Below, piece by piece: positions 8,476-50,042 of a stretch of DNA of 64,000 bases (its first letter is position 1; the number at the start of each line of letters is the position of its first letter). The stretch is from Pseudovibrio denitrificans JCM 12308 (GTDB lineage Bacteria > Pseudomonadota > Alphaproteobacteria > Rhizobiales > Stappiaceae): contig NZ_BAZK01000003.1 of assembly GCF_001310815.1 (NCBI RefSeq), positions 186,001 to 250,000 on the forward strand. The letters are read 5' to 3'. Under the pieces are notes generated by a model, which was given only the letters and a program-made list of their open reading frames with translations, made no database searches and was not told the origin of the DNA. A program made the position numbers and the translations under genes.

Positions 8476-8482
8476 TTGGATT

Positions 8483-8911: not shown

Positions 8912-9078
8912 GGTAAAGGAACATTCCTACCTTCGCGCTGATCTGAATATTGAAGCGTATCGCTGAAATCTGACCTCTCAGCTTTCGGGTAAAGATGCGT
9001 GATAAAATAAAGACTTAGAGCCTGACATGTGATTGCAAAAGACCGTGACATGCTCTGATAACTTCCAAGGAGAAGGCG

Positions 9079-9339: not shown

Positions 9340-9445
9340 CCCTGTTCCTGCACTCACCGAAGGGTGAGGTTAAAAGAGAGGTATACGCGCAGAAAAGCTG
9401 CTGCGGCGCATAGAAATACTCTTCAAAACCAGTGAATTAGGCAAA

Positions 9446-31944: not shown

Positions 31945-32086
31945 TTCTAACTGTGCTTCGTCACAGTCGGTAGAAAAATCCTGTCAGGCACATGGGGATT
32001 CAGGCACTAAGAAAAAAACTGTGACACTATTGCAAGCCTCACAGCTGAAAGATGCTTATCAGCCTATTTGAAGCGCTCCACGCCAA

Positions 32087-32568
32087 TCAGGCGCGGTGGT
32101 AGGGATGTCCAGTTAAAATTGTGATGGCGCGGTAGATTTGTTCGCCGCACATAATGCGGACCAGCTGGTGGGGCCATGTCATGGAGCCGAGGGCCAGCTT
32201 CAGGTCTGCACGCTGCAGCAGCGCCTGTCCGTGCCCGTCTGCACCACCAATGGCGAGAACCACGTCGGAGATGCCTGATCAGCCCAGCCGCCAACCTTTT
32301 TGGCAAAGGCCTCACTGGAAAGTGTCTTGCCGTGCTCATCCAGTGCGATAAGGATCGCGCCGGAAGGAAGCGCATTGAGCAGAAGTTGCGCCTCTTCGTC
32401 TTTTCTGTCTTGCGTGCGGGAAGCCCGGCTCTCTGAAAATTCAACCACGGACACAGAGGTGATGCCAACAGAACGGCCAGCTTTGCGAGCCCGGTCCAGA
32501 TAGCGTTCGTACATGTCCTTTTCCGCGCCAGCTTTCATTTTGCCGACGCAGGCAATCGTGACTTTCAT
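32087..32568 (-). pseudogene. rlmH: 23S rRNA (pseudouridine1915-N3)-methyltransferase RlmH, one frameshift
   Basis: SPOUT methyltransferase that modifies pseudouridine 1915 of 23S rRNA. It begins MKVTIACVGKMKAGAEKDMYERYLDRARK; ILIALDEHGKTLSSEAFA follows. The frame is lost near 32274 after GGWADQ, where one missing G would restore [20 protein letters not shown] (the SAM knot) and [16 protein letters not shown], ending with TGA at 32087. Corrected length is 160 aa, as expected. The gene is almost universal, so a consensus error is far likelier than loss. It follows rsfS, the conserved order. Confidence 0.93.

Positions 32569-36433: not shown

Positions 36434-36434
<1 letters not shown>
35355..36434 (-). 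CDS. proB: Glutamate 5-kinase ProB
   Basis: 359 residues; phosphorylates glutamate in the first step of proline synthesis. The amino-acid kinase domain (about 1-255) has [50 protein letters not shown] in the catalytic centre and [19 protein letters not shown]. The C-terminal PUA domain starts at about residue 270 ([24 protein letters not shown]). The ATG at 36434 shares one base with the obgE stop (TAATG), so the genes are coupled. A longer start at 36446 would run into obgE. Confidence 0.96.
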
Positions 36435-37531
<1,097 letters not shown>

Positions 37532-37585
37532 CTATTGCGCTCCCGCCAAGGGTGGAACAGCAAATCTGGCTAATTTTGTTGCTCT

Positions 37586-37630
37586 GCGTACCCCCGAAAA
37601 GTGCCATGAGGTTTTCGGACAAGGGTACGC
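37586..37630. repeat. Palindromic intergenic repeat, tandem copy 1
   Basis: 45-bp element GCGTACCCCCGAAAAGTG...GGTTTTCGG...GGGTACGC with near-symmetric arms. It is followed 11 bases later by a second copy, between the end of the GNAT gene and obgE. Confidence 0.85.
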
Positions 37631-37641
37631 AACTTGAAAAA

Positions 37642-37686
37642 GCGTACTCCCGAAAAGTGTTTTGCGGTTTTCGGACAAGAGTACGC
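37642..37686. repeat. Palindromic intergenic repeat, tandem copy 2
   Basis: 45-bp element with outer arms GCGTACTC and GAGTACGC and the shared core CCCGAAAAGTG...GGTTTTCGG. Together with copy 1 it forms a direct tandem pair of hairpins that could shape mRNA stability or expression ahead of obgE. Confidence 0.87.
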
Positions 37687-37781
37687 TGGGTGTTTCAAAG
37701 TACGCGCTGAAACAGCCAAAAGGCTCGCGAACATCAATTCACGAGCCTTTCGAAATGAAGATAAGCTGAGATGGGAGAGTT

Positions 37782-38327
37782 TTAGGCTGCAATCGCCTGC
37801 ATGGATGCCCATCTGTCCCGGGTCAGTGTGACCGTCGTATAATCCATTTCGATGTCGCCGCGTGCGCGGTTCTTTTCTTTGGTCTCTCCGGTAACCTCAA
37901 ACCCGTTCTTCTGAAGCACATTCAGAGACTTCGGGTTGATGGTGAACAGACCGGTGTTCATTGCACCTGCTTTCAGCTGGTTGAACACATAATCACAAAC
38001 CAGATTGGTTGCTTCACTGGCGTAGCCCTTGCCCCAGTGAGACTTTGCCAACCAGTAACCGAGGTGAGGCACTGTCGATACATTGCGAATGCCGATCACG
38101 CCGACCAGACCTTCACCGTTGTCGATGACCCAGTTGATTTCTTCGCTATGCGGCGTGGTGCGGCAGTGGTCAAACCACCAATCACCATCATCCTTGGTGT
38201 AAGGATGCGGAACCACGGTCAGCATCTTGCTCACGTCGAAATCGTTCAGAAACTCGTTATGAATATCAAAATCACCCTCGCGAAAATCGCGTAGGATCAA
38301 GCGCTCGGATTGCAACTCCGGGAACAT
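37782..38327 (-). CDS. GNAT acetyltransferase, RimJ/RimL type, next to obgE
   Basis: 181-residue N-acetyltransferase (Acetyltransf_3). It opens MFPELQSERLILRDFREGDFD, with FEVSKMLTVVPHPYT-like residues (here DVSKMLTVVPHPYT), then the acetyl-CoA region GYWLAKSHWGKGYASEA and LNVLQKNGFEVTGE. It is closest in sequence to the first genes of the array at 41.8-43.6 kb (shared VVPxPYTKxDGxWW and GYWLAKxxWGKG), so it belongs to the same set although 3.5 kb of plus-strand genes separate them. The substrate is unknown; RimJ/RimL relatives acetylate protein N-termini, and others modify small molecules. Confidence 0.88.
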   Translation of the reverse strand: MFPELQSERLILRDFREGDFDIHNEFLNDFDVSKMLTVVPHPYTKDDGDWWFDHCRTTPHSEEINWVIDNGEGLVGVIGIRNVSTVPHLGYWLAKSHWGKGYASEATNLVCDYVFNQLKAGAMNTGLFTINPKSLNVLQKNGFEVTGETKEKNRARGDIEMDYTTVTLTRDRWASMQAIAA

Positions 38328-39194
38328 GACAAACTCTTCTTATTCTTCTTGGAGCGCTTGGCTTATTTTTGCTGGCGCTCTTAATTCAAGTACACGAAGA
38401 TAGCGTCAAGCCCGTCAGTCCACATGCCTGCAACGCGCCGGTGCTATCCAAACCACGCTTCAAGTTCCTGAACTTCAAATCTCTGAGTGCGATACACAGC
38501 CAAAAAACTGGTGGATGATCAACCAGATGGACGAGGGAGCAAAAGGCTGTTGCCGCAACCTTGCTCAAGACCCTTATCCTGCCATCTGCCGAAAGTCGCG
38601 GAACGCATAAACTGTCGCGCCAGCCAGTACAGAAAGAGCAAGACCCATCTTCAATCTCTCTGATCCATAAGGAAACAGCAGGAAACTGAAGGTGATCAAC
38701 ACCTGCGCTTCACTTCAAACTGAAGGAAACCGGCCAGGTAACAGTATCTTGGAGATTTCAAAATCCGAGAGGAACTTTAAAAGCTTGGGGGCGGTCAGTA
38801 TCTCGGACAGAACCTGATTGCAAGCTCTTAGAGCGCGTTTTTGGAAATTTTTTCACTGAGTGAGGATTATTTGAGTATGACGATGCGCATCCCTGCATCT
38901 CTCAAAGAAGAGAAACCGCCTACAGGCCTTGTGTGTGAAGATCAAGACCTTAGTGAAAACCCCAAAGAAAATCTTAGGAAAGAGTTCAGCACACCCACAT
39001 TGTGCGTATGAAAAATGCGTGAGCTTCGCTCTTTATGAAATGCCGGGCTTTACTTGAGGGTAAATATATGGAATGCCCTCTGTACGTTAAGACTATCGAC
39101 TCCCTGTCTCCTTATGGCGTCAGTGCACTCGATTTTGCCCTGACGCTAAAGCTGCTTGCATGTCGCAACAGCATATCCAACAGGAGATATCACG
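38328..39194. other. Long gap before the cold-shock gene
   Basis: No confident gene. The first part may hold a broken small membrane-protein gene on the plus strand (separate entry). A short minus-strand frame (38574-38702, GTG start, hydrophobic VLITFSFLLFPYG then LALSVLAGATVYAF) is also possible. Further on, GCGTCAG (39117-39123) and CTGACGC (39140-39146) form a hairpin in what would be the long 5' leader of the cold-shock mRNA. Confidence 0.5.
38330..38610 (+). pseudogene. Candidate remnant of a small membrane-protein gene
   Basis: Not recognised. From 38330 one frame reads LLILLGALGLFLLALLIQ, a clean transmembrane helix, then a basic segment (KPRFKFLNFKSLSAIHSQK) and stops. If one A is restored in the run near 38505 it continues NWWMINQMDEGAKGCC and ends with TAA at 38608-38610. 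No start codon is in frame: a TGA lies directly in front and the nearby ATG (38326) is in another frame. Either more bases are missing or the gene is dead. The region otherwise looks non-coding. Confidence 0.3.
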
Positions 39195-39401
39195 ATGGCT
39201 AAAGGCACCGTGAAATGGTTCAACACCACCAAAGGTTTCGGTTTCATCGCACCTGAAGATGGAAGCAAAGACGTATTCGTTCACATCTCAGCTGTAGAGC
39301 GCTCCGGTCTTTCCACTCTGGCAGACGGCCAGGAAGTGACTTTTGAACTGGAAACAGGCCGCGACGGCCGCCAGAGCGCTGTAAACCTCGAAACCGTATA
39401 A
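39195..39401 (+). CDS. Cold-shock protein, CspA family
   Basis: 68-residue single OB-fold RNA chaperone. It has [23 protein letters not shown] with RNP1 (KGFGFI) and [13 protein letters not shown] with RNP2 (VFVHI). The ATG at 39195 follows AGGAG at 39182; an in-frame start at 39156 lacks support. The long leader and the flanking hairpins are typical of temperature-controlled csp mRNAs. It ends at a strong terminator. It lies in the plus-strand block that splits the GNAT genes. Confidence 0.93.
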
Positions 39402-39421
39402 TTCGAGCGACACAGTTTCTA

Positions 39422-39454
39422 AAAAGAGAGCGTAGCAATACGCTCTCTTTTTTT
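39422..39454 (+). terminator. Intrinsic terminator of the cold-shock gene
   Basis: A 13-base perfect stem (AAAAGAGAGCGTA 39422-39434 with TACGCTCTCTTTT 39439-39451), a 4-base loop and a T-run to 39454. Confidence 0.95.
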
Positions 39455-39570
39455 GTTTGGAGTTCACTCCGAACTTTACGCGCCAATCTTGAGAGCATCA
39501 ATTGAGTTGCTCATGGGATCCCAACCAGCCCACTTCGTTTCTTCTTGCCAATCCACTCAGAAGCTAGTGT

Positions 39571-39589
39571 AAGGTACGGTATCGTACTT
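39571..39589. promoter_or_regulatory. TetR operator in front of the tetR gene
   Basis: AAGGTACGGTATCGTACTT contains the symmetric core GTACGGTATCGTAC (14 bp, one mismatch pair). It shares the half-sites GTACGGTA and TATCGTAC with the larger palindrome in front of the OsmC gene 0.7 kb downstream, so the TetR protein probably represses both. Confidence 0.72.
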
Positions 39590-39611
39590 GCCTGAGAGTT
39601 GGAAGCATTGC

Positions 39612-40244
39612 ATGGAAACGGAAAAAAAGGTGTCACGTGGCGAAAAGCGCAGAAATGAGCTTCTGGAAATAGCAACTGACACGATTATCGAGCTTGGCTA
39701 TGCCAACACCTCGATGGATGAGATCGTCAGGCGTGCCCGCGCCTCCAAAACCACGGTCTATAGACATTTCAAAAACAAAGAAGCAATGCTGGCAGAGATT
39801 GTCAGCAACCTGTCCGAAGGGCCAGTTCTCTCGATCAAGCCTCTGGATTCTCATGCTGACGGCGGATCTCTTCAGGAGCTGGAAGAGACACTCTTTGTCT
39901 TTGGCAAAGCGGTGTTGACCCTCATCTATGATGACAGAACCTTAGGACTTTGGCGCATGCTTATCGGAGAGGGCTGTCGCGCGCAGCATATCACGAAGTC
40001 TTTCTTCCAGCTCGGCCCCAAGCGCGCCAGCTCCAGCATCGCACAGCAACTGCAACTCGCCAATGAGCTTGGAATTATCTCAGTTGAGCACGCCGAAAAG
40101 GCAGCGAGCATTTTTATGGGCATGCTGCGCGAAGACACGCATCTTGCGTTGCTATTGGGCGTTCAGTCAGCACCCAGTGAGGAAGAGATTTCTTCTCATG
40201 TTCGCCAATGCGTATGCGACTTCATGAAAGCTCACAGGGCCTAG
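39612..40244 (+). CDS. TetR/AcrR family regulator, probable repressor of itself and of the OsmC gene
   Basis: 210 residues. The TetR HTH is KRRNELLEIATDTIIELGYANTSMDEIVRRARASKTTVYRHFKNKEAMLAEIV. The C-terminal domain resembles the AefR-type group, with LGLWRMLIGEGCR and AASIFMGMLRE. The ATG at 39612 (METEKK) is preferred over 39588, which lies inside the operator. Matching palindromes precede this gene and the OsmC gene, a strong sign of a two-target local regulon. It may respond to an organic peroxide or electrophile, by analogy with OsmC regulation; this is inferred. Confidence 0.9.
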   Translation: METEKKVSRGEKRRNELLEIATDTIIELGYANTSMDEIVRRARASKTTVYRHFKNKEAMLAEIVSNLSEGPVLSIKPLDSHADGGSLQELEETLFVFGKAVLTLIYDDRTLGLWRMLIGEGCRAQHITKSFFQLGPKRASSSIAQQLQLANELGIISVEHAEKAASIFMGMLREDTHLALLLGVQSAPSEEEISSHVRQCVCDFMKAHRA

Positions 40245-40304
40245 CTGCACTCACTTGGAGACAGTACGAAACCTGTGAAGCTTGACGAAAGCAATTTTTA
40301 TCTG

Positions 40305-40335
40305 ATAAGTGTACGGTACAGTATCGTACACTTAT
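40305..40335. promoter_or_regulatory. 31-bp operator palindrome in front of the OsmC gene
   Basis: A near-perfect 31-bp palindrome (14 of 15 base positions symmetric) with outer arms ATAAGTGTACG and CGTACACTTAT. It carries the same GTACGGTA...TATCGTAC half-sites as the site in front of the TetR gene, spaced 5 bases wider. It ends about 10 bases before the OsmC ATG, so binding would block the promoter or early transcript. Confidence 0.8.
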
Positions 40336-40345
40336 GGAGGTAGAG

Positions 40346-40933
40346 ATGCTTGACAATAACACTGTTGCACATTCCATCGTAACCCGCGCCGAGGTCATGC
40401 CAACGCCGCAGCACATCAGCCTGAACAAAATCAGAAAGTCAAAAGACGGTCTGGAGCTTGAGGTTGATTTGATCGCTGAACTCACAGGCGATGGCCTGGT
40501 CAAGAGTGGCGTGGTGCAGCCCAACGTTCCCGGTTTCGGTGCTTTTGAACTCCTTTGCGATGAAGGCTCATCCATTGGCGGAGCAGATACCGCCCCAGCT
40601 CCACTGTCCTACCTCGCAGCTGGTATTGGCTTCTGCCTGCTGACCCATGTGCATGGGCTGGCCCAGTCCCGGAAGCTGAACATCTCCTCCATCAAGCTGG
40701 AGCAGAAGATGAAGTTCCAATCCAAAATTCCGGGAATGACGGCTGAAGAGGGCTCGGAAATGCTTGGTGTCTCAAAAGGCATTGAGACCGTCATCATTAT
40801 CGAGTCGCAAGAAGACCCATCGCTGATCGCTTTACTCGTGGAGGCAAGTGAGAAGGCCTGCATGGCGCTTCAAACCGTCGTAAATGCAATTCCGTCATCG
40901 ACCACAATCATCAACAATGGCCAGAAACTCTGA
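40346..40933 (+). CDS. OsmC family protein
   Basis: 195 residues with an OsmC-type domain in the second half: APAPLSYLAAGIGFCLLTHVHGLAQSRKLNISSIKLEQ, including the conserved Cys of the helix (GFCLLTH), and EASEKACMALQTVV with the second Cys (KAC). OsmC/Ohr proteins reduce organic peroxides with a Cys pair; this is a diverged member with an extra N-terminal domain, so the activity is not certain. The ATG at 40346 is chosen for the GGAGG at 40336-40340; the ATG at 40334 lies in the operator. The palindrome points to control by the TetR gene next door. Confidence 0.87.
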   Translation: MLDNNTVAHSIVTRAEVMPTPQHISLNKIRKSKDGLELEVDLIAELTGDGLVKSGVVQPNVPGFGAFELLCDEGSSIGGADTAPAPLSYLAAGIGFCLLTHVHGLAQSRKLNISSIKLEQKMKFQSKIPGMTAEEGSEMLGVSKGIETVIIIESQEDPSLIALLVEASEKACMALQTVVNAIPSSTTIINNGQKL

Positions 40934-41042
40934 GCCAGACCTGATGCGCTGGGCTGTCTGTAAAATGAAATAGTTTAAGAGGCAGCCCTCTTCTCCAACT
41001 CACCTTCTTAAACTTGAAGCAGAGAAGGGCGGGGGAAACACA

Positions 41043-41768
41043 ATGATGTCCTCGAAAAATCCCACCTACTATCCCACCATATTCTGTAACCAGCTGATGG
41101 CGACAATTGTCTGGGCCCAGCTCTTCGTTCTCTATTGCATCACGCTTCTGGCCTTCAGCACGCAGAATGAAAGTCATGTGTTCTGGGCTGATCCATTCAT
41201 CAAGATCATACCAATCTATGCCTCGACCTGGCTTGTCATTCTCACGTCTCTGCTCTTGGGCTGGTATTGCTTCAAAAAGCTTGGCTGCACAGGTTTGAAA
41301 AGGCATACACCTGTCACGCAGATCATTGCCGGGGCAGGTACAGCGGTCATCGTGACCTGCATAATTTGGAGCATCTTCGGAAGCAAACTGCCGGACTTTG
41401 TTCCAGCCGAAGAAAGCTCTCGCCCTGGCTTTCTCTTTGGTATGGTTGCCGGATACGGTGAGGAACTATTGTTCCGCATGCTAATCAGTGCGCCTGTCTT
41501 TTTCGGCATGTTCAGGCTGCTGGCAGGAGTAAAGCACACCTATCGTGTGTTTTGGTCGGCATTAACTGCGGTTCTCATCGCTGCGATTGCCTTTGTTATC
41601 TTTCACGAGCTGGGCGAAACTGACCACACACTGATGTGGAACTTGATAGCCACCCGCATGCTTGTGCCGGGGCTGATAATGGGCAGCCTGTTTTTCCTCC
41701 TTGGGCCGGGTTTCGTCATTTTTATGCATGCCTCAATGCACATAATGATACCGCTGCTGTTTAACTGA
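41043..41768 (+). CDS. CPBP family intramembrane metalloprotease
   Basis: 241 residues with about six membrane segments. The CPBP/Abi motifs are all present: EE-x3-R as GEELLFRMLI, FxxxH as VIFHELGET, and a final H-N/S-type motif as HASMHIMIP. The family includes CAAX-type prenyl proteases, bacteriocin-immunity and regulatory proteins; the substrate is unknown. A GGGGG stretch precedes ATG 41043 (or 41046). It is convergent with the GNAT array, with a strong hairpin between them. Confidence 0.87.
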   Translation: MMSSKNPTYYPTIFCNQLMATIVWAQLFVLYCITLLAFSTQNESHVFWADPFIKIIPIYASTWLVILTSLLLGWYCFKKLGCTGLKRHTPVTQIIAGAGTAVIVTCIIWSIFGSKLPDFVPAEESSRPGFLFGMVAGYGEELLFRMLISAPVFFGMFRLLAGVKHTYRVFWSALTAVLIAAIAFVIFHELGETDHTLMWNLIATRMLVPGLIMGSLFFLLGPGFVIFMHASMHIMIPLLFN

Positions 41769-41776
41769 TCACAAAA

Positions 41777-41808
41777 CGTGTCGCGTGCGGCCGTCGGCAC
41801 GCGACACG
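41777..41808. terminator. Perfect 12-bp hairpin between CPBP gene and GNAT array
   Basis: CGTGTCGCGTGC (41777-41788) pairs exactly with GCACGCGACACG (41797-41808) around an 8-base loop. There is no T-run, so it may end the GNAT transcript with help of Rho, insulate the convergent genes, or be a structural site. Confidence 0.65.
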
Positions 41809-41817
41809 CAACTTGCC

Positions 41818-42369
41818 TCAAACAGCCACCGCCCGCTTGGCTTCCCAGAGGTAGCGGGTGAGCTCCGTCTCAATCAAGGTCACTGCTTCATTTCCACGTG
41901 CACGACACTTATCTCGTCGCAAACCGGTGCGTTGAAAACCATTCTTTTCTTGTACGCGAAGAGAGCCATGATTTTCGTCGAAGGCCCCACAAGTGATCCG
42001 CTCTGAACCAAGGACTTCAAAGCAGTATCGAATAACCTCTGCCGTCGCTTCACTCATAAAGCCCTTGCCCCAGAATGGTTTGGCCAACCAATAACCAATC
42101 AAAGGCACACCTTCCTCTGAGATGTGGATGCTGATAACTCCTACAAAATGGTGCTCGAACTCGATGGCCCAGTTGACCTCTTGTGTCAGCGGAGTGTTTG
42201 CGCAATTACTCAACCACCACTCACCATCGGCTTTGGTGTAGGGATAAGGCACCACAGACAGCATCCGCGTAACCTCAAAGTTATTGAGGTAGTCGCAAAT
42301 CAGCGCCAGGTCATTTTCTCGAAGTGCTCGCAAAGCTAGGCGCTCTGTCTTGAGCTCTGGAAATGTCAT
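41818..42369 (-). CDS. GNAT acetyltransferase, array member 1 (last in the array)
   Basis: 183 residues, RimJ/RimL type. Opens MTFPELKTERLALRALRENDL; has TRMLSVVPYPYTKADGEWW, then acetyl-CoA motif GYWLAKPFWGKGFMSEA and VQEKNGFQRTG. The downstream end (AVAV C-terminus) is shared almost base for base with member 2, a sign of recent duplication. Belongs to subgroup 1 with members 2 and 3 and the copy at 37.8 kb. Substrate unknown. Confidence 0.87.
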   Translation of the reverse strand: MTFPELKTERLALRALRENDLALICDYLNNFEVTRMLSVVPYPYTKADGEWWLSNCANTPLTQEVNWAIEFEHHFVGVISIHISEEGVPLIGYWLAKPFWGKGFMSEATAEVIRYCFEVLGSERITCGAFDENHGSLRVQEKNGFQRTGLRRDKCRARGNEAVTLIETELTRYLWEAKRAVAV

Positions 42370-42396
42370 GTAACTAAATCCTAAATAAAAAATGCC

Positions 42397-42945
42397 TCAA
42401 ACAGCCACAGCCCGCATGGCTTCCCATAGGTCGCGGGTGAGCTCTACGTTGATCAGGGTGATGTCTTCCTCGCCACGGGCGCGGCTTTTTTCTGGTTGAG
42501 TGCCGACGGTCTGGAAGCCGTTTTTGGCCAGCACGTTCAGCGAGCCATCATTTTCCTCAAAAGCACCGGATGTAACTTTGGTGACACCAAGCGTCTCAAA
42601 GCAGTAGTCCACCACGGCCTCGGTCGCTTCGCTCATGTAGCCCTTGCCCCAGAACGGTTGGCCCAACCAGTAGCCGATGAGTGGGACACCGCTTTCGCCA
42701 ATGCGGATGGTAATAACACCCGCAAATCCGAGCTCAGATTCAATAGCCTAGTTGGTCTCTTTCGTCAGAGGCGTCTCGCTGATGTGGTTGAGCCACCATT
42801 CGCCATCTGCCTTGGTGTAAGGGTAAGGAACCACAGTCAGCATTTTGCTGACTTCAAAGTTGTTTATGTTCTCGCAAATCGGCTCCAGATCATCCTGCCG
42901 AAACTGGCGAAGGGTGAGGCGACTGGTGTTGAGTTCAGGAAACAT
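42397..42945 (-). pseudogene. GNAT acetyltransferase, array member 2, interrupted by an amber codon
   Basis: Reads MFPELNTSRLTLRQFRQDDL... up to TPLTKETN, then TAG at 42748-42750 exactly where all relatives have the Trp of the (V/T)NWAIE motif. The frame then continues in phase through AIESELGFAGVITIRIG, GYWLGQPFWGKGYMSEA and NVLAKNGFQ to the same AVAV end as member 1. A single base change (TGG to TAG), not an indel. Without suppression it gives only 65 residues. An internal restart could make the C-terminal part (from about 42666). Confidence 0.85.
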
Positions 42946-43026
42946 TTTCTATCCAATTTCTTGTACTTAGGAGCGCTTAGTCATTCGATCTCAAACACTC
43001 TGGAATTTTGTTGGCTGCTGACGCGC

Positions 43027-43572
43027 TCAGGCAATCGTAAGCCGTTCAGCCCACTGTTCTTTTGTCAAACTGAGAGAAATATTCGGCAGTGTTTCGCCTT
43101 CGCGAGATCGCGGTGTCGAAAAGCCTCTGCCGACTTCGCGAAAACCCAGCTTGTTCAGAACACGCAGGCTGGCAGGATTTTCTTCAAGTGCGGAGGTGTA
43201 GATCGTTGGCAAGTCGAGCGTTTCAAAGCCATATGTCACGACAGCTTCAGCGGCCTCACTCATATAGCCTTTGCCCCACAGATGCTCCGCAAGCCAGTAC
43301 CCCAAAATAGGTTTACCGCTTTGCAGCTTCATCAGCGTGATCGCACCGGAAAAGCCCGCAGGCCCCTCAACAACCCAGGCAATCTTTTCAGAGAGCGGAG
43401 TGGTACGGCAAAAGTTGATCCACCACTCCCCATCCTCTTTGGAGTAAGGATAGGGCACCTCGGAAAGTGTTTTCACGACTGCAAAATTATTGATGTGCGT
43501 ACAAAGCGGCTCCAGATCTGTGTGCTTGAACTGGCGCAGTGTCAGTCTGTCTGTTTTAAGTTCAGGAAACAT
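43027..43572 (-). CDS. GNAT acetyltransferase, array member 3
   Basis: 181 residues of subgroup 1. MFPELKTDRLTLRQFKHTDL; VVKTLSEVPYPYSKEDGEWW; GYWLAEHLWGKGYMSEAAEAVV; ENPASLRVLNKLGFREVG. Follows member 4 by 9 bases, so it is probably translated from the same message. The C-terminus (TKEQWAERLTIA) differs from members 1 and 2. No catalytic residue can be named with certainty in this family. Confidence 0.88.
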   Translation of the reverse strand: MFPELKTDRLTLRQFKHTDLEPLCTHINNFAVVKTLSEVPYPYSKEDGEWWINFCRTTPLSEKIAWVVEGPAGFSGAITLMKLQSGKPILGYWLAEHLWGKGYMSEAAEAVVTYGFETLDLPTIYTSALEENPASLRVLNKLGFREVGRGFSTPRSREGETLPNISLSLTKEQWAERLTIA

Positions 43573-43581
43573 CTTAAATAC

Positions 43582-44160
43582 TCATGTGCTCGCGTCTGTG
43601 CTGGTCAGGCGAAGAAAGTCATTGCGGGTTATCTGAAGTTGGATCTCATCCAGCTCTGCATTGTCTCGCGCACGGCAAACATGTTTGGCCTCGCCCGTGA
43701 TTTTGAAGCCGTATTTGGTCAGCACACGCATTGAGGCCGGGTTTTCTTTGAAAACACCGGTGCGCACTACATGAAGCGCTCGCTCTTCAAAAAGATAAGC
43801 AAGAACAGCCTGCAAAGCTTCGCTCATCAGGCCTTTGCCCCAATGCTCCCGCCCAAGCCAGTATCCAACACTCGCAGCTCCTTGCAGTTCCTTGGCTTTA
43901 AAACCACCACAAAACTGCCCATCAAGCTCAATGGCCCACGTCACGTTTTCAGCAGTATTGTTCGCAAGCGCCTGCGCAATGTAATCCTGCCCATCTGTTT
44001 CAGAAAACGGATGCGGCTGACTGCTCAGCGATTTAGAGACCTCAAAGTCCCCCAAATAAGCACAAAGCTGCTCAAGATCTCCTGCCCGCATCTCCCTCAG
44101 CACAAGCCGGTTGCTGCGGAGCACTGGGAAGGTTGTAAGAGTGGTGTCTCGTGGGCTCAT
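43582..44160 (-). CDS. GNAT acetyltransferase, array member 4
   Basis: 192 residues. The conserved part begins TFPVLRSNRLVLREMRAGDLEQL; SKSLSSQPHPFSETDGQDY; WAIELDGQFCGGFKAKEL; GYWLGREHWGKGLMSEA; ASMRVLTKYGFKITGE. Pairs with member 5 as subgroup 2 (shared FPVLRSxRLVLREMR, QFCGxFKA and C-A-R-A/G-R/G region). Its start overlaps the stop of member 5 by 4 bases, so they are coupled. Confidence 0.88.
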   Translation of the reverse strand: MSPRDTTLTTFPVLRSNRLVLREMRAGDLEQLCAYLGDFEVSKSLSSQPHPFSETDGQDYIAQALANNTAENVTWAIELDGQFCGGFKAKELQGAASVGYWLGREHWGKGLMSEALQAVLAYLFEERALHVVRTGVFKENPASMRVLTKYGFKITGEAKHVCRARDNAELDEIQLQITRNDFLRLTSTDAST

Positions 44161-44744
44161 TGCAACAACCCCTTATCTTCAAGAGGCAAATCGACATCAA
44201 TTGCTGCGCTGAACTGCTCAGATGAAATCATAAGAAATGCTTCCTCCAGCTCTTCACCACCCCGTGCATTGCAAGTGTTGGTGCGCAGCTTTTTGATAGT
44301 GAAACCAGCTTTCTGTAATACTCGTAAGGAAGCAGGATTGCAGCAAAACGCTCCGGTTTGCAGTGTTTTAAGGCCTCGGTGCTGGAACAGGTAAGTCAGC
44401 ACCAAACGCATTGCCTCGCTCATGAAGCCTTTGCCCCAATGTGGCTTTCCGAGCCAATAACCGATACCAGGATAGCTGTTCAGGTAGTTTGCTTTAAAAC
44501 ATCCGCAGAACTGCCCTTCATGCTCAATCGCCCAATGGATCTCGTCATTCAGATCTCCGCTCAGCGCTCGCATAAGATACTGCTGCCCGTCCTCAAGGGA
44601 GAAGGGATGCGGCGGACTACAAAGCATCTTCGCCACATCATAATCACCCAGATACTCAGTCAGTAGTTCCAAATCGGTTTCCCGCATTTCCCGCAGAACA
44701 AGTCGGTCGCTGCGGAGAACAGGAAAAGTATTTTGGGTCTTCAT
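44157..44744 (-). CDS. GNAT acetyltransferase, array member 5
   Basis: 195 residues. TFPVLRSDRLVLREMRETDLELL; AKMLCSPPHPFSLEDGQQY; HWAIEHEGQFCGCFKANY; GYWLGKPHWGKGFMSEA; ASLRVLQKAGFTIKKL. Carries several extra Cys residues (CC in GAFCCNPAS, NTCNARG) not seen in subgroup 1. The C-terminal tail (DVDLPLEDKGLLQ) is longer than in its relatives. Lies 5 bases after member 6. Confidence 0.88.
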   Translation of the reverse strand: MKTQNTFPVLRSDRLVLREMRETDLELLTEYLGDYDVAKMLCSPPHPFSLEDGQQYLMRALSGDLNDEIHWAIEHEGQFCGCFKANYLNSYPGIGYWLGKPHWGKGFMSEAMRLVLTYLFQHRGLKTLQTGAFCCNPASLRVLQKAGFTIKKLRTNTCNARGGEELEEAFLMISSEQFSAAIDVDLPLEDKGLLQ

Positions 44745-44749
44745 GGCGA

Positions 44750-45298
44750 TCAGCTTTCCGCTTCTGCAAGATCCACGAAATCGGCGAGGGGCAAGGCAAG
44801 CCGGATATGAGGAACCATCGTATCACCACGTCCTTTGGAGGGGATAGATTCTTCTCCAACTTTGCTGAAGCCCATTTTATCCAACAAGTGAGAAGAGGCA
44901 GGGTTGTCTGCAAAGACACCAGCCTCAAAGCGTGTCACAGCGCGGTGTTCAAACCCAAAACGTAAAACCGTGCGCAGGGCTTCACCCATGTAGCCACGGC
45001 CCCAATAAGGCTCACCCATCCAATAGCCGGTCCAGCCTGTGCCATCCTCAAATTTTGCCCAGATACAGCCAACCAGGCCAGTTCCATCATCAATCGCCCA
45101 CAACACCACACTTGCAGGATCATTGGTACGGCCACGACTGATATAGAACCTGGCAGTTTCCTCCGTAAACGGATGCGGCATGCCTGAAAGCATGCTCGCA
45201 ATCGCGTAGGAGTTTGCCAGTTGAACAAGGTGATCGAGATCACCGTCGTCGATCATGCGCAATCGGAGACGGTCTGTTTTCAGCTCTGGAAAAACCAC
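44750..45298 (-). CDS. GNAT acetyltransferase, array member 6 (GTG start)
   Basis: 182 residues. GTG start at 45298, one base after the stop of member 7. MVFPELKTDRLRLRMIDDGDLDHL; SMLSGMPHPFTEETARFY; WAIDDGTGLVGCIWAKF; GYWMGEPYWGRGYMGEA; the HLLDKMGFSKVG segment. More diverged than its neighbours in the acetyl-CoA loop (WGRGYMGEA), and with an acidic C-terminus. Confidence 0.87.
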   Translation of the reverse strand: MVFPELKTDRLRLRMIDDGDLDHLVQLANSYAIASMLSGMPHPFTEETARFYISRGRTNDPASVVLWAIDDGTGLVGCIWAKFEDGTGWTGYWMGEPYWGRGYMGEALRTVLRFGFEHRAVTRFEAGVFADNPASSHLLDKMGFSKVGEESIPSKGRGDTMVPHIRLALPLADFVDLAEAES

Positions 45299-45299
45299 T

Positions 45300-45860
45300 T
45301 TATCTTATCCCCGCCACAGCAAGTTGTGGTTGTTCCACCGCTTGACCCAGATTGAGTTCGAAGTTTTGTGTCTCCACCTCATCAGTTCCTCTGGAGACGC
45401 AGGAGTGCGTACAAACGGAGGTCGGAACGAAGCCATTTTTCAAAAGAACGCGAAATGACGCAGGATTCTCCAAAAAAACGCAAGCATCAACGTTCTCGAC
45501 GTTCCGCTCGGATTGCAGATAGTTTACAACGGCTTGCACCGCTTCACTCATGTAGCCCCGCCGCCAGTAGTATTTTCCAAGCGCGTAGCCCAAAGATGCG
45601 GATTCTCCAATCCGGTGCGCACCAATGGACCCAATGAAGCCGGTACCATTGTCAATCGCCCAAACCACATCCGTCTTCAGATCAAAAGAATGACTACGAC
45701 TGATAAACTCATGCGCCCACTCATCCGTAATCGGGTGCGGAAAACTGGCGGTCATCCGTGCCACATCATAGTCAGAGAACAGAAACCGCAGCCGAGGAAA
45801 ATCGTCTGGCTGAAGTGCTCTTAAAATCAACCGGTTGGTCTGTAGTTCAGGGAAGATCAT
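45300..45860 (-). CDS. GNAT acetyltransferase, array member 7
   Basis: 186 residues. MIFPELQTNRLILRALQPDDFPRL; ARMTASFPHPITDEWAHEF; WAIDNGTGFIGSIGAHRI; GYALGKYYWRRGYMSEAV, in which the usual GYWL and WGKG are GYAL and WRRG; FRVLLKNGFVPT. The altered acetyl-CoA loop may change cofactor handling. Its start overlaps the stop of member 8 by 4 bases. Confidence 0.87.
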   Translation of the reverse strand: MIFPELQTNRLILRALQPDDFPRLRFLFSDYDVARMTASFPHPITDEWAHEFISRSHSFDLKTDVVWAIDNGTGFIGSIGAHRIGESASLGYALGKYYWRRGYMSEAVQAVVNYLQSERNVENVDACVFLENPASFRVLLKNGFVPTSVCTHSCVSRGTDEVETQNFELNLGQAVEQPQLAVAGIR

Positions 45861-46423
45861 TGTGCTGCCTCCTGCACTCTGAGCTGTTGTGCTGCGATGA
45901 AATCTCTAGGGGATATGCGGAACTCTTCTGTAGGATAAGTCCCGGCAAGACGGGCGCGGCTACGCCCCTCATTCCGCCCCGTATGGACAAAACCAAGCTT
46001 TTTCAGCAGGGCCTGCGAGCCGGCATTGTCGCTGAAGGCATCCGCACAAATGGAAGGGACTTCGCGTTCTAGCAAAAGGTAGTTGAGCGCTGCACTAACT
46101 GCCTCATACATAACGCCTTTATTCCATTTTTCTTCGGCAAGCCAGAAAGCGAGATCTGGTGTGTGCTGCAGATAGCCGACACCCACTCCGCCAATCACGA
46201 CCCCCTGAAGCTCCACGGCCCAGTTCACAGCATGACCTAGATCACCGGGCATAAACCTCTGCAGAAACACCTCAGCATCTGCCTTTGTGAAAGGGTGGGG
46301 CTGCGATGCCAGCATGCGGGTAATGTTTTGATTTTGCAGCAGTTCCACAAGTCGCGGCGCATCCGTCTCTCTCCATTCCCGAAGTGTCAGGCTTGCTGTT
46401 CTTAAACGAGGGAAAGTGGTCAT
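45857..46423 (-). CDS. GNAT acetyltransferase, array member 8
   Basis: 188 residues. MTTFPRLRTASLTLREWRETDAPRL; TRMLASQPHPFTKADAEVFL; NWAVELQGVVIGGVGVGYL; FWLAEEKWNKGVMYEAV (the GYWL and WGKG motifs are FWL and WNKG); QALLKKLGFVHTGR. Nearly identical to member 9 at both ends, a recent duplicate. 4-base overlaps on both sides couple it to members 7 and 9. Confidence 0.88.
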   Translation of the reverse strand: MTTFPRLRTASLTLREWRETDAPRLVELLQNQNITRMLASQPHPFTKADAEVFLQRFMPGDLGHAVNWAVELQGVVIGGVGVGYLQHTPDLAFWLAEEKWNKGVMYEAVSAALNYLLLEREVPSICADAFSDNAGSQALLKKLGFVHTGRNEGRSRARLAGTYPTEEFRISPRDFIAAQQLRVQEAAQ

Positions 46424-46986
46424 TGTGCTGCCTCCTGCACTCTGAGCTGTTGTGCTGCAATGAAATCCAGCGGGGATATGGCGAACTCTTCTGTAGGATA
46501 ATCGCCAGCCAGACGCGCCACGCTGCTCCCCATTCCTTGCCCGGTATGAACAAATCCAAGCTTACGCATCAGCGCTTGAGATCCCATGTTATCGCTGAAT
46601 GCATCCGCAACGATCTTGGGGAGTTCACGTTCAAGAAGAAGGTAGCGCAAGGCTTCACTAACAGCCTCAAACATAATACCTTTTTGCCAGTGCTCCTCGG
46701 CCAGCCACCATCCGATGCCAGGTGTGTCATTCAAAGGTCTGGCGCCAACGCCGCCGATCACTTCTCCCTGAAGTTCAACGGCCCAGTTAACAGCCTCGTT
46801 CAGATCACCGGGGATTGCCGTCTGCAGAAAAGCCTCCGCATCCGCCTTGGTAAAGGGATGTGGTTTCGAAGTCAGCATGCGCGTAATGCTATGATTTTGA
46901 AAGAGTTTCAGTGCACGTGGTGCATCTGTTTCTCTCCACTCCCGCAGTGTCAGGCTGGTCGTTCTTAAGCGAGGAAAAGTGGTCAT
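46420..46986 (-). CDS. GNAT acetyltransferase, array member 9
   Basis: 188 residues. MTTFPRLRTTSLTLREWRETDAPRA; TRMLTSKPHPFTKADAEAFL; GWWLAEEHWQKGIMFEA; QALMRKLGFVHTGQ; ends SPLDFIAAQQLRVQEAAQ as does member 8. The middle has diverged more than the ends, which suggests duplication followed by selection for a new specificity or by gene conversion at the ends. 4-base overlap with member 10. Confidence 0.88.
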   Translation of the reverse strand: MTTFPRLRTTSLTLREWRETDAPRALKLFQNHSITRMLTSKPHPFTKADAEAFLQTAIPGDLNEAVNWAVELQGEVIGGVGARPLNDTPGIGWWLAEEHWQKGIMFEAVSEALRYLLLERELPKIVADAFSDNMGSQALMRKLGFVHTGQGMGSSVARLAGDYPTEEFAISPLDFIAAQQLRVQEAAQ

Positions 46987-47573
46987 AGCGCAGCTCCCAT
47001 CATCACATGCGCATCACCATGCAATGCTTCAAACCGATCCCGCGGCAGATGCATGATGATATTCTCAACGTCTTGTTGCAGAGGTTTAGAGTAGCGAAGG
47101 CAAACACCAGCTGGCTCAAAGCCTAGCTTTTTCAATACTTTCTGAGAGGAGTAGTTCGTCGCAAACACACGAGCGGCAAACACATCACATGCCTCGCGCG
47201 AAAAGCCCCAGTGGAGCGCGGCAACACATGCTTCAACCATAAAGCCTTGCCCCTGAGCTTTCTGAGAAAGCCAGTACCCAATGGTTGGCAGCTCCGGGAA
47301 CTCTTTGAGATCACCGGGCTTTTCAATTTCAACACCGCCAACGAGTTGGCCGTCAAGTTCGATGGCAAACGGAAACGAGTCCGTTTTTGGATTTACTGCA
47401 ATGGCCTTTTCGATAAAGGCTTCAGCCTCCATCATAATTGGAGGCCACGTTAACCCGGTAAGCCAACGTGCAATTTCATAATCAGAGTGGCCGATCTCCC
47501 AAAATCGGGCGAGATCGTCAGATTGGAATGGGCGCAGCTGCAGCCTTTGAGTATCTAAAGTTGTGGTGAGCAT
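46983..47573 (-). CDS. GNAT acetyltransferase, array member 10
   Basis: 196 residues. MLTTTLDTQRLQLRPFQSDDLARF; YEIARWLTGLTWPPIMMEAEAF; FAIELDGQLVGGVEI; GYWLSQKAQGQGFMVEA, i.e. with the older RimJ/RimL-like GQGFMVEA loop; QKVLKKLGFEPAG. The least similar to the other array members and probably the closest to the ancestral type. Its start follows a 225-bp gap from member 11, so it may have its own promoter. Confidence 0.86.
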   Translation of the reverse strand: MLTTTLDTQRLQLRPFQSDDLARFWEIGHSDYEIARWLTGLTWPPIMMEAEAFIEKAIAVNPKTDSFPFAIELDGQLVGGVEIEKPGDLKEFPELPTIGYWLSQKAQGQGFMVEACVAALHWGFSREACDVFAARVFATNYSSQKVLKKLGFEPAGVCLRYSKPLQQDVENIIMHLPRDRFEALHGDAHVMMGAAL

Positions 47574-47797
47574 CGTAAAAGGCCTTGTAAATCAAACGCA
47601 TATTTCTCTGGTCGTTATTTGAAATGGATAAGTGAAGGTAAAACGCAGCAGCCCCGATGATCCGAAATGCAGACATGACGAATGCATCAGGATCAGAAGG
47701 ATCGCTGGTTTGTGTGGTTGAAGGTATGCCGTTACAGGCAAACAACAATCACGCTGCCGGAAGCAGGTTGCTTTGGCTGCAACCTGCTGATCTGGCA

Positions 47798-48406
47798 TCA
47801 CTTAACCAGCAGATCCCCATGCGTATTCGCGATCCATTGGGTGCGGGTCAGTGTAAAGCGTGTGGCATCCACCACGGCCATAGCGCCGAGAGAATGCAGC
47901 TTTGTTGTTCCATCCTGCTTAAAGCCGCACTTGGTCAGCACGCGGTGCGAGGCAGGGTTGCTCACACGGCAAGAAGCGGAGAGCTCCTTTACGCCGTTGG
48001 CAAACGCAAATTCGATAACAGACTGAACAGCTTCTGTCGCATATCCTTGGTTCCAGAATGGCTCGCCCACCCAATAACCCAGATGCACAGCACCAAAGTC
48101 TTCGGCAAGCGGATTGAAACCGATAGCGCCAATAAAGCGGCCAGTGTTCTTCATGCGGATCGCGAATGTCGCTTGAGACGGTAACTGAACCTCACACCGC
48201 TTTACGAGCGCTTTAGCGTCTTCGTACGTGAATGGATGCGGCATGTTTGTCAGTTTCTCAGCGATCCGACGGTTGTTGGCCAAAAACAGGATGTCAGCCA
48301 AATCATCCTTGCGCGCTCGGTCGATGACGAGACGCGCGGTGTCCTGCGGCGACCCGGCCGCAAAGCAACTGCTTTCTTCTGGGATCTCTTCGTATTCAAC
48401 TACCAT
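47798..48406 (-). CDS. GNAT acetyltransferase, array member 11 (nearest rpmA)
   Basis: 202 residues from ATG 48406 (MVVEYEEIPEESS); the frame upstream to 48445 is unlikely. RLVIDRARKDDLADILFLANNRRIAEKLTNMPHPFT, split here as RLVIDRARKDDLADIL and AEKLTNMPHPFT; RFIGAIGFNPL; GYWVGEPFWNQGYATEA; HRVLTKCGFKQDG. It carries an extra N-terminal acidic part. It sits at the place where relatives have their single GNAT gene downstream of rpmA. It may share the rplU-rpmA promoter (162 bp to rpmA). Confidence 0.87.
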   Translation of the reverse strand: MVVEYEEIPEESSCFAAGSPQDTARLVIDRARKDDLADILFLANNRRIAEKLTNMPHPFTYEDAKALVKRCEVQLPSQATFAIRMKNTGRFIGAIGFNPLAEDFGAVHLGYWVGEPFWNQGYATEAVQSVIEFAFANGVKELSASCRVSNPASHRVLTKCGFKQDGTTKLHSLGAMAVVDATRFTLTRTQWIANTHGDLLVK

Positions 48407-48567: not shown

Positions 48568-48837
48568 TTACTCAGCGGCGAGCGCCACTGGCATCACATT
48601 AATAAATGTTCGGCCGTTGCGTTTTTCTTCAAACGCAACTTTGCCTTCTACGGTCGCAAAGATAGTATGGTCTTTACCCATGCCTACACCTGCGCCTGGG
48701 TGCCACTTAGTGCCACGCTGACGTGCAATGATGTTGCCAGGTACGACAGCTTCGCCACCGTATTTTTTGATGCCAAGGCGGCGACCAGCTGAATCGCGAC
48801 CGTTGCGGGATGAACCGCCAGCTTTTTTATGAGCCAT
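48568..48837 (-). CDS. rpmA: 50S ribosomal protein L27
   Basis: 89 residues. [29 protein letters not shown] is the universal L27 N-terminus that reaches the peptidyl-transferase centre; [28 protein letters not shown] follows. Located 45 bases after rplU. It leads straight into the GNAT array on the same strand; no strong terminator was seen between them. Confidence 0.97.
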
Positions 48838-48882: not shown

Positions 48883-49458
48883 TTACTTCGCTGCGAGTTC
48901 CTTAGCCTGTTCAACCCAGTTATCGCGTTCAAAACGGCCTTTCAGACCAGCTTCTTCTTCAACGCGGGCGATATCTTCAGCGGAGAAAGCTGCGATCTGT
49001 GCGAAGGTGGAAACACCTGCTGCATTCAGCTTTTTCTCGATTGCTGGGCCAAGACCCTGCAACTTCTTCAGATCGTCGGAACCTTCAGCAGCTGGTGCAG
49101 CAGCAGCTTTCTTAGGAGCCGCAGCTTTTTTAGCTGGCTTCGCGCCACCGGTCAGGATGTCAGTGATCTTCACAGTAGTGAATGCCTGACGGTGACCGTT
49201 GCGACGACGGGAGTTCTGACGACGACGCTTTTTGAAGACGATGATCTTACGATCACGACCCTGCTCAACAACTTCAGCTACAACAGACGCGCCTTCAACG
49301 GTTGGTGCACCGATGGTGGTTTCAGCATCTGAACCAACCATGAGAACTTCGTCGAAAGTTACTGTTTCACCAGCTTCAGCAGAAACTTTTTCGATCTTCA
49401 GGAGATCGTCAGCAGCAACAGTGTACTGTTTACCGCCTGTTTTGATGACTGCGAACAT
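48883..49458 (-). CDS. rplU: 50S ribosomal protein L21 with C-terminal helix-hairpin-helix extension
   Basis: 191 residues, almost twice the classical 103. The first 104 or so are L21 ([18 protein letters not shown], the [17 protein letters not shown] loop and the TTVKITDIL end). After an Ala/Lys linker ([18 protein letters not shown]), a small domain [37 protein letters not shown] resembles the helix-hairpin-helix of DNA/RNA-binding proteins. The start at 49458 has GAAGGA 7 bases upstream; ATG 49464 is too close. Extended L21 is known in Alphaproteobacteria; the role of the extension is not established. Confidence 0.95.
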
Positions 49459-50042
49459 GCGCATGTCCTTCTTATCTAAGCGCACCCTTCGGCGTCGCAG
49501 GTTTCTGCGAACTTGTTCGACCGTTTCCCTAATTGCTCTGGGAACGTCCCTCTGTGGGGAGATCGACCGCAAACTCTGGAAAAACCAGAAGGCGATTTCG
49601 ATGTCTTGCCTCGGACAGCGCGGAAAAGCGGGATTACCCGCAATTTATTGAGCTGCTGGAATATACGCAGGCATTCTGGAATGTCAACGCAGAATCTCGC
49701 CAAAAATATTAGAAATACGAGTGGTGAGATCTATGTCACATAAGATCAACTTTCAAAGAACGCTCCGGCGTCGGAGTGATTCGCGCTATGGTTGCGCAAA
49801 CAGATTTATACCTACGATCTAATTGTTACGTCCAAATACCTATTCCGCTGCGTTTAAACGTCCATTCTACGATTGGTTTAAGGATCGATAAACCTTCGCC
49901 AGCCAACAATAAGGCAACGCGATTTGTGCATGTTCCATACAAGTGCTAGGAGAGGAATGGGCGCTCAATATGGAATGACTGTGACAATCTCGCGATCATT
50001 ATCATCCAATGAATTAAACCGCATACGTGCGGGGGGCATAAA
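49459..50042. other. Divergent promoter region of rplU and the chemotaxis gene
   Basis: No gene seen. It contains the minus-strand leader and promoter of rplU-rpmA and the plus-strand promoter of the chemoreceptor. Small hairpins occur at 49763-49776 (CTCCG/CGGAG) and near 49540 (GGGA-ACG-TCCC); the latter falls in the rplU leader and might be an L21 control site, but no known leader motif was recognised. Confidence 0.5.

What the first reader, a model, noticed from the sequence alone, without database searches (positions are those of the whole stretch)
41818..48406. Array of eleven tandem GNAT acetyltransferase genes behind rplU-rpmA
Eleven RimJ/RimL-like GNAT genes (ten intact, one with an amber codon) stand head to tail on the minus strand within 6.6 kb. 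Four junctions are 4-base start/stop overlaps, several others are 1-9 bases. All keep the fold signature (GYWL...WGKGxMSEA and an NGF/LGF segment) but differ in the substrate-facing part, and they fall into at least four subgroups. Relatives usually have one or two such genes here. A local, ongoing expansion attached to ribosomal-protein genes suggests either a set of protein N-terminal or ribosomal-protein acetylases, or a diversified detoxification or antibiotic-modification bank. I know of no description of such an array.
Basis: partly seen in the sequence, partly recalled or inferred. Interest (0 to 1): 0.92.

Follow-up and report, generated by a model that had tools for sequence, protein, structure and literature searches.

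The report
Expanded acetyltransferase gene array in Pseudovibrio
A marine bacterium carries eleven side-by-side acetyltransferase genes, plus a twelfth nearby, next to ribosomal-protein genes; most of them descend from one ancestral gene, are kept working by selection, and may form a set of enzymes that each tag a different amine-bearing molecule.

Summary
Eleven GNAT genes (one with an in-frame TAG) lie at 41818-48406, minus strand, behind rplU-rpmA; a twelfth lies at 37782-38327 before obgE. The genus is Pseudovibrio. The site rplU-rpmA-[GNAT]-obgE-proB-proA is old: other Hyphomicrobiales sampled have 0-4 GNATs there, usually 1-3; the 16 Pseudovibrio genomes have 3-12. Slot 1 is a single-copy orthologue of the family's first gene, slot 2 mostly so; in a tree with seven Pseudovibrio genomes all other copies form one clade, so one founder was amplified. 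The window's copies are 23-76% identical, keep the catalytic N..S motif (12 of 12), group mostly by slot rather than species, and evolve under purifying selection: not a misassembly, and only partly 'ongoing'. A second, unlinked GNAT array between rho and mnmE went from one ancestral gene to 2-8 in the same clade; it belongs with PA3944, which acetylates polymyxins in vitro. Function is not shown. I favour a bank of amine or peptide N-acetyltransferases with diversified acceptor sites over ribosomal-protein acetylases. No description of either array was found in nine literature searches. New variant of a known kind.

The parts
48883..49572 (-). rplU (bL21, with C-terminal extension); the likely real start is the ATG near 49461
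   Evidence: PF00829 138 bits; start read from sequence
48568..48837 (-). rpmA (bL27)
   Evidence: PF01016 130 bits
49660..49687 (-). best sigma-70-like promoter match in the region, TTGACA-16-TATATT (11 of 12), upstream of rplU
   Evidence: promoter matches as a class are no more than chance (7 found, 8.7 expected)
47798..48406 (-). g01, slot 1 GNAT, one copy in each of 16 Pseudovibrio genomes, orthologue of the first GNAT in Stappiaceae
   Evidence: PF13302 107 bits; trees
46983..47573 (-). g02, slot 2 GNAT, orthologue of the family's second GNAT
   Evidence: tree
46420..46986 (-). g03, expansion GNAT, near-twin of g04 (76% aa)
45857..46423 (-). g04, expansion GNAT
45300..45860 (-). g05, expansion GNAT
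44750..45298 (-). g06, expansion GNAT (GTG start)
44157..44744 (-). g07, expansion GNAT with a patchy orthologue (only G011 in the genus tree)
43582..44160 (-). g08, expansion GNAT
43027..43572 (-). g09, expansion GNAT
42397..42945 (-). g10, GNAT interrupted by TAG at codon 66; probable pseudogene (its halves were not in the trees)
41818..42369 (-). g11, expansion GNAT, last gene of the array
41776..41809 (-). terminator-like hairpin (13 pairs, 9 G-C) 8 bases after the g11 stop
37782..38327 (-). g12, expansion GNAT next to obgE, separated from g11 by a plus-strand block
   Evidence: PF13302 98.5 bits; tree
36434..37525 (-). obgE, far boundary of the ancestral slot (then proB, proA)
   Evidence: PF01018 211 bits; neighbours

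Best explanation
Shown: in Pseudovibrio, one GNAT gene of the old rpmA-[GNAT]-obgE slot was copied in place many times. The copies were kept as separate, diverging, selected genes next to the conserved slot-1 and slot-2 GNATs. Probable: the eleven are one unit with rplU-rpmA, read from a promoter upstream of rplU to a hairpin after g11, so the enzymes are made in proportion to growth. Inferred: each intact copy is an acetyl-CoA-dependent N-acetyltransferase that uses the conserved serine of the N..S motif; the acceptor pocket, mainly the beta3-beta4 loop, beta5 and the beta6-beta7 loop around an invariant Arg158, has been re-tuned from copy to copy. The set most likely acetylates different amine-bearing small molecules or peptides met by the cell, a detoxification or self-protection bank. 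The single-copy slot-1 enzyme keeps an older housekeeping role.
For: All 36 expansion copies from the seven Pseudovibrio genomes in the tree form one clade (bootstrap 100, SH-aLRT 95; 88 proteins). Slot 1 and slot 2 join the family's first and second genes. Copies cluster mostly by slot, not species, so there is no general homogenisation. dN/dS at most 0.385 in 35 of 35 slot-matched pairs. Catalytic motif in 12 of 12 (in g10 it lies after the stop); its serine aligns with the essential S148 of PA3944 (alignment; role from passages of PMC8072286). Divergence between slots: beta3-beta4 loop 2.14 bits, beta6-beta7 loop 1.99, beta5 1.95, against 1.11 for the CoA loop and 1.23 for the N..S helix. 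Copy number varies (3-12) with broken copies in G000, G004, G010, G012 and G013, as I would expect of environment-facing genes rather than ribosome maintenance. The second array expanded in the same clade and is PA3944-like (195 bits over 182 positions); PA3944 acetylates polymyxin B and colistin in vitro (passages).
Against: No substrate, transcript or phenotype is known. The array-1 enzymes are not close to PA3944 (65 bits): their best solved relatives are an uncharacterised GNAT (3fbu, 84 bits) and 1nsl (71), with spermidine, RimJ-type, RimL-type, bleomycin and MccE acetyltransferases all at 48-59 bits, so homology does not choose a substrate class. RimJ or RimL models are the top curated hits of 8 of 10 copies, though far below cut-off. 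The alpha1-alpha2 loop, also near the acceptor site, is conserved. Both expansions belong to essentially one clade, so their coincidence is close to one evolutionary event: A against B copy number, Spearman 0.85 over 15 genomes but 0.43 (p 0.24) within nine large-clade genomes; copy number also tracks genome size (0.83 over 15). Six weaker minus-strand terminator-like matches lie between rpmA and the g11 stop.
Confidence: 0.47

Rival explanations
1. The copies are protein N-terminal acetyltransferases that have divided up targets (ribosomal or other proteins), with expression coupled to the ribosome through rplU-rpmA.
For: A GNAT follows rpmA in 17 of 20 genomes (19 other families of the order) sampled. 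RimJ or RimL models are the top curated hit in 8 of 10 copies scanned. RimL- and RimJ-type structures are among the profile hits.
Against: No copy scanned comes near the curated RimJ or RimL cut-offs (best 34.9 bits against 190, 34.4 against 184). Gain, loss and breakage of copies between close species fits poorly with modification of invariant ribosomal proteins. In 16 of 20 genomes of other orders no GNAT was detected there.
Confidence: 0.25
2. The tandem arose by recombination-prone local duplication and persists for dosage or nearly neutral reasons, without substrate diversification.
For: Tandem layout; broken copies (g10 here; others in G004, G010, G012, G013); copy number rises with genome size; some species-specific duplicates, such as two slot-2 copies in G008.
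Against: Copies are mostly 23-52% identical with one pair at 76%, mostly orthologous by slot over ten species, and under purifying selection in the pairs tested.
Confidence: 0.15
3. The copies act on intracellular metabolites (polyamines, amino acids, osmolytes, sugars of surface polymers) in regular metabolism, rather than on foreign compounds.
For: SpeG and diamine acetyltransferases are among the profile hits; stable orthologues over ten species.
Against: No linked pathway genes seen: the neighbours are core genes and a csp/TetR/OsmC block. No curated family cut-off is reached by ten copies scanned.
Confidence: 0.12
4. Assembly artefact: duplicated or collapsed copies.
For: The window's draft has 94 contigs and seems to hold several frameshifts (by eye).
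Against: Best-matching repeat between copies is 75% over 577 bases. The array recurs in independent genomes, two of them on contigs of 4.8 and 4.6 Mb with 11 and 10 copies.
Confidence: 0.01

Closest known systems
Acetyltransf_3 (PF13302) RimJ/RimL-type GNATs
   Same: Fold family, CoA loop, N..S catalytic motif; the eleven intact copies score far above the Pfam cut-off.
   Different: Ten copies scanned are far below the RimJ, RimL, SpeG and aminoglycoside acetyltransferase curated cut-offs; substrate unknown.
Single or few GNATs between rpmA and obgE in Hyphomicrobiales
   Same: Same slot, same strand, orthologous founder genes.
   Different: 0-4 copies in the loci sampled against 3-12 in Pseudovibrio.
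PA3944 of Pseudomonas aeruginosa (polymyxin-acetylating GNAT, PMC8072286)
   Same: Array B (rho-mnmE) is a full-length relative at 195 bits and keeps the Glu and Ser positions; array A shares the serine.
   Different: Array A matches it at only 65 bits; no activity shown for either array.
MccE C-terminal domain (microcin C acetyltransferase)
   Same: A hit of the slot-1 and expansion profiles; same serine (PMC8072286 passage).
   Different: 48-53 bits only; no microcin genes noticed nearby.
GNAT-type toxin-antitoxin loci
   Same: GNAT in a small operon.
   Different: Nine of ten junctions inside the array are under 100 bases, leaving no room for an antitoxin gene; no PADLOC match for ten proteins scanned.

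Membership tests
GNAT superfamily, Acetyltransf_3 | PF13302 over gathering cut-off | tested here: met
   Ten intact array genes 84-107 bits, g12 98.5, broken g10 98 by genome search; cut-off 25.4
GNAT superfamily, Acetyltransf_3 | CoA loop and catalytic N..S motif | tested here: met
   N..S in 12 of 12; G103, E107, N133 and S136 invariant in 71 sequences
RimJ (ribosomal protein S5 N-acetyltransferase) | NF008072 equivalog cut-off 190 bits | tested here: not met
   best 34.9 bits of ten proteins (g10 and g12 not scanned)
RimL (L7/L12 N-acetyltransferase) | NF007539 equivalog cut-off 184 bits | tested here: not met
   best 34.4 bits of ten proteins (g10 and g12 not scanned)
RimJ/RimL | acetylates a ribosomal protein N-terminus | not testable with these tools
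   needs proteomics or enzymology
Aminoglycoside 6'-acetyltransferases | NCBIfam cut-offs (140 to 400 bits) | tested here: not met
   best 27.1 bits of ten proteins
PA3944 family (array B) | full-length homology with Glu102- and Ser148-equivalents | tested here: met
   E 1e-56, 182 positions; E100 in at least 90% and S146 in all of 30 sequences (30 of the 39 intact array-B proteins listed)
PA3944 family (array A) | full-length close homology with Glu102-equivalent | tested here: not met
   65 bits; none of the window's twelve copies has Glu there, and of nine slot consensuses only slot 4 does
GNAT toxin-antitoxin | adjacent antitoxin gene | tested here: not met
   no room at nine of ten junctions; no PADLOC match for ten proteins; no antitoxin model was run on the flanks

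The most novel reading that the evidence does not exclude
Pseudovibrio turned two GNAT genes lodged in core operons (rplU-rpmA-[GNAT]-obgE and rho-[GNAT]-mnmE) into growth-coupled banks of divergent acetyltransferases. The 10 to 18 genes of both arrays per large-clade genome (broken ones included) would each disarm a different amine or peptide antibiotic met in invertebrate hosts: a modular chemical shield built into housekeeping operons.
Probability: 0.25. Interest if true: 0.78.

Novelty: new variant of a known kind. Interest (0 to 1): 0.55.

Why it matters
GNATs are very common bacterial enzymes whose substrates are mostly unknown (recalled). Here one founder gene has been turned by natural duplication into about ten selected, alignable, co-oriented variants in a genus with cultured strains, with one to four relatives at the same place in sister genera. 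That is a ready comparison for learning how GNAT acceptor specificity changes. It also suggests that core translation operons can host accessory gene banks. The slot-1 GNAT, kept behind rpmA over much of an order, had no assigned function in anything my searches returned and may merit study on its own.

Tried and rejected
Misassembly: rejected. Defence system: no PADLOC match for ten proteins. Toxin-antitoxin array: rejected, no room for antitoxins at nine of ten junctions. RNA element: only two tRNAs in the window at Rfam's gathering scores. General concerted evolution or gene conversion: rejected by slot-wise clustering, apart from a few species-specific duplicates. Amber recoding: not pursued; one stop in one of twelve genes is simplest as a pseudogene. 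Structure prediction and fold comparison: unavailable. Literature: nine searches, seen as listings. In the main texts of PMC3806328, PMC4811931 and PMC5959193, word searches found no 'GNAT' and one 'acetyltransferase' (a YopJ homologue); supplements were not read. PMC5112248 (passages) names acetyltransferases from sponge libraries, none tied to this locus. Order-wide search with the expansion profile: no genome other than the window's had more than 5 matches at E 1e-25 among 297, but at most 11 candidates per genome were scored and no other Pseudovibrio was listed in that draw. Tandem GNAT arrays of other kinds in other phyla were not surveyed. A first count of the named loci gave one zero (L132) that the recount by position showed to be a counting artefact.
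Full report
OBSERVATION. The window holds eleven GNAT ORFs on the minus strand at 41818-48406 exactly as reported, and a twelfth at 37782-38327. The ten intact array genes match PF13302 at 84-107 bits, the twelfth at 98.5 bits; the broken one scores 98 bits with one TAG in the whole-genome search. I call them g01 (next to rpmA) to g11, and g12 (next to obgE). Four junctions are 4-base overlaps and three are 1-9 bases. Pairwise identity is 23-76% (eleven proteins, g10 left out). At DNA level the best-matching stretch is 75% over 577 bases, so a collapsed or duplicated assembly is not a plausible cause.

ONE OPERON, PROBABLY. The best promoter match in 12.6 kb (TTGACA-16-TATATT, 11 of 12) stands upstream of rplU at 49687-49660, and a hairpin of 13 pairs with 9 G-C begins 8 bases after the g11 stop. 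Promoter matches as a class are no more frequent than in shuffles (7 against 8.7), so only the position and score of this one count; terminator-like matches are in excess (23 against 13.9). Six weaker minus-strand hairpins (5-8 pairs, 3 G-C) lie between rpmA and the g11 stop, one of them between rpmA and g01 and one in the 224-base gap before g02, which could also hold a promoter that the scan does not see. g12 is cut off from the rest by a plus-strand block (a csp-like gene by eye, TetR, OsmC-like, a membrane protein).

WHO ELSE HAS IT. A scan of named genomes with the slot-1 alignment returned ten Pseudovibrio records first. Counts between rpmA and obgE in named Pseudovibrio (fragments counted as pieces): sp. 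Ad37 10, ascidiaceicola 9, japonicus 10, axinellae 11 (1 fragment), uncultured 151-G 9 (2 fragments), hongkongensis 4, stylochi 4, exalbescens 4 and 3; one record (X9) was cut off. Of the 70 other loci of that scan 59 could be scored: 20 hold one GNAT, 12 two, 20 three and 7 four (one of the fours counts two fragments). These loci were chosen for having a slot-1 GNAT, so they cannot show zero. In the unnamed set of the genus (16 genomes; halves of one broken gene counted once by me) the counts are: G000 12 (1 broken), G001 9, G002 10, G003 11, G004 7 (1 broken), G005 4, G006 6, G007 4, G008 10, G009 10, G010 10 (1 broken), G011 11, G012 8 (1 broken), G013 at least 8 (contig end, last one broken or cut), G014 4, G015 3. 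The two sets overlap and must not be added.

OUTGROUPS. For 20 of the 65 other genomes of the family, the slot holds 1-4 GNATs, 13 of the 20 having three (in L040 one of the three is a partial match). For 20 of the 59 genomes of other families (19 families), 17 have at least one behind rpmA and none more than 4; three have none, and in three (L066, L074, L077) obgE was not found in the stretch. For 20 of the 75 genomes outside the order, a GNAT was detected in 4 (1-3 copies) and not in 16. So rplU-rpmA-GNAT-obgE-proB-proA is an old arrangement chiefly of this order; its size is what is special in Pseudovibrio. In an order-wide profile search the window's genome had 11 matches at E 1e-25 and the next highest had 5 (297 genomes; at most 11 candidates scored each).

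HISTORY. The careful tree has 88 proteins, 50 of them from seven of the 16 Pseudovibrio genomes. Pseudovibrio slot 1 lies with the family's first genes and slot 2 in one clade with the family's second genes (100/99). The other 36 Pseudovibrio copies form one clade (100/95): one founder, most simply the obgE-side gene, though the nearest outgroup of the clade is only moderately supported. Slot 1 occurs once in each of 16 genomes; slot 2 was found in 14 of 16, twice in G008, and not as an intact gene in G004 and G015. Copies from outlying species fall inside several subclades of the expansion, some with modest support (80/78), so much of it probably predates the split of the genus, with later loss in the small-genome species. 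The species tree from nine core proteins gives a well-supported ten-species clade with 8-12 copies (G013 cut off); G004, G005, G006 and G015 are its sisters with 3-7; G007 and G014 have 4. In the genus tree copies group mostly by slot, not by species. Turnover is visible: g07 has an orthologue only in G011, g03/g04 are a younger pair, g10 is broken.

SELECTION. dN/dS (Nei-Gojobori) is 0 to 0.385 in 35 of 35 slot-matched GNAT pairs from four genome pairs. The core neighbours rpmA, obgE and proB are mostly lower (0 to 0.09, one rpmA pair without changes), rplU 0.035 to 0.19. For array B nine of ten pairs gave 0.05-0.17 and one was saturated. This is purifying selection; no test for positive selection at single sites was made.

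CHEMISTRY. The N..S motif is present in 12 of 12, and N133, S136, G103 and E107 (g11 numbering) are invariant in 71 sequences. S136 aligns with S148 of PA3944, which is essential there and equivalent to the suggested catalytic serines of RimL and MccE (passages of PMC8072286). Between slots, divergence is lowest in beta1 and the CoA loop (0.89 and 1.11 bits) and highest in the beta3-beta4 loop (2.14), C-terminus (2.06), beta6-beta7 loop (1.99), beta5 (1.95) and beta7 (1.93); the alpha1-alpha2 loop is low (1.21) (61 proteins in nine slots, the g07 and g10 slots left out as far as the window's copies go; segment borders set from recalled GNAT topology). Arg158 in the beta6-beta7 loop is the same in all nine slots. 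Curated families do not name a substrate: RimJ best 34.9 bits (cut-off 190), RimL 34.4 (184), aminoglycoside enzymes at most 27.1, although RimJ or RimL is the top hit in 8 of 10. Solved-structure profile hits spread over 3fbu, 1nsl, PA3944, RimJ- and RimL-type, SpeG, bleomycin acetyltransferase and MccE.

A SECOND ARRAY. The own-genome search showed a second GNAT cluster on another contig (C22). It lies between rho and mnmE (hemE-hemJ-rho-GNATs-yyaL-mnmE-mnmG). In 17 of 18 family genomes fetched there is exactly one GNAT at this place and in one none. In Pseudovibrio six genomes (G004-G007, G014, G015) have one and nine have 2-8 (G000 6 with 2 broken, G001 4, G002 2, G003 4, G008 8 with 1 broken, G009 5 with 1 broken, G010 2, G011 4, G012 2; pieces of one broken gene counted once by me); G013 is fragmented. 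All nine expanded arrays are in the ten-species clade. The array's profile matches PA3944 over 182 positions at 195 bits, and the E102 and S148 positions of that enzyme are kept. PA3944 acetylates polymyxin B and colistin in vitro; its natural role is not stated in the passages I saw. Two unlinked slots expanding in one lineage suggests a shared pressure, but it is one lineage: within nine large-clade genomes the two copy numbers are not significantly correlated (0.43, p 0.24), and copy number also tracks genome size over 15 genomes (0.83).

JUDGEMENT. The anatomy, founder history and selection are shown. The operon is likely. The function is inferred. Copy-number turnover, slot-wise divergence and the PA3944 kinship of the sister array favour a bank of amine or peptide N-acetyltransferases; position behind ribosomal genes is inherited from ancestors with few copies and is weak evidence for ribosomal targets. 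Nine literature searches gave no description of either array; subscription papers and supplements were not seen.

Noticed in passing
L001 (G000:C22), about 5771-9346; L023-L037: Second GNAT array between rho and mnmE, PA3944-like, one copy in 17 of 18 sister-genus genomes and in six Pseudovibrio, 2-8 in nine others.
   Followed up: yes
window 47798-47830: The last residues of g01 differ from all 13 orthologues in the slot-1 alignment, as if the 3' end were in another frame.
   Followed up: partly
window 27628-28997, 32064-32568, 18489-19142: ORFs that look like a C-terminal processing protease, RlmH and UppP seem split or cut short (by eye, names and lengths recalled), suggesting frameshifts in this draft, whose completeness is 94.9 against 99-100 for the 15 other Pseudovibrio.
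   Followed up: no
window 39190-41768: Plus-strand block (csp-like gene, AefR-like TetR, OsmC-like, membrane protein without a Pfam match) sits inside the GNAT slot between g11 and g12; its TetR/OsmC/membrane genes were detected there in seven of 16 Pseudovibrio genomes (G000, G001, G002, G003, G009, G011, G013).
   Followed up: partly
window 37560-37700: Short inverted and direct repeats with the core TTGTCCGAAAAC and TTTTCGGG.GTACGC between g12 and obgE (by eye).
   Followed up: no
window 48883-49572: rplU carries a C-terminal extension with a weak helix-hairpin-helix match (26.9 bits against a cut-off of 27).
   Followed up: no
L015 (G008), 5756-6951: Two neighbouring slot-2 GNAT copies, the only genome of 16 with slot 2 doubled in the genus tree.
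   Followed up: no
rho-mnmE and rpmA-obgE slots, genus-wide: Both GNAT slots lie upstream of a gene for a conserved GTPase (obgE, mnmE); this may be coincidence.
   Followed up: no
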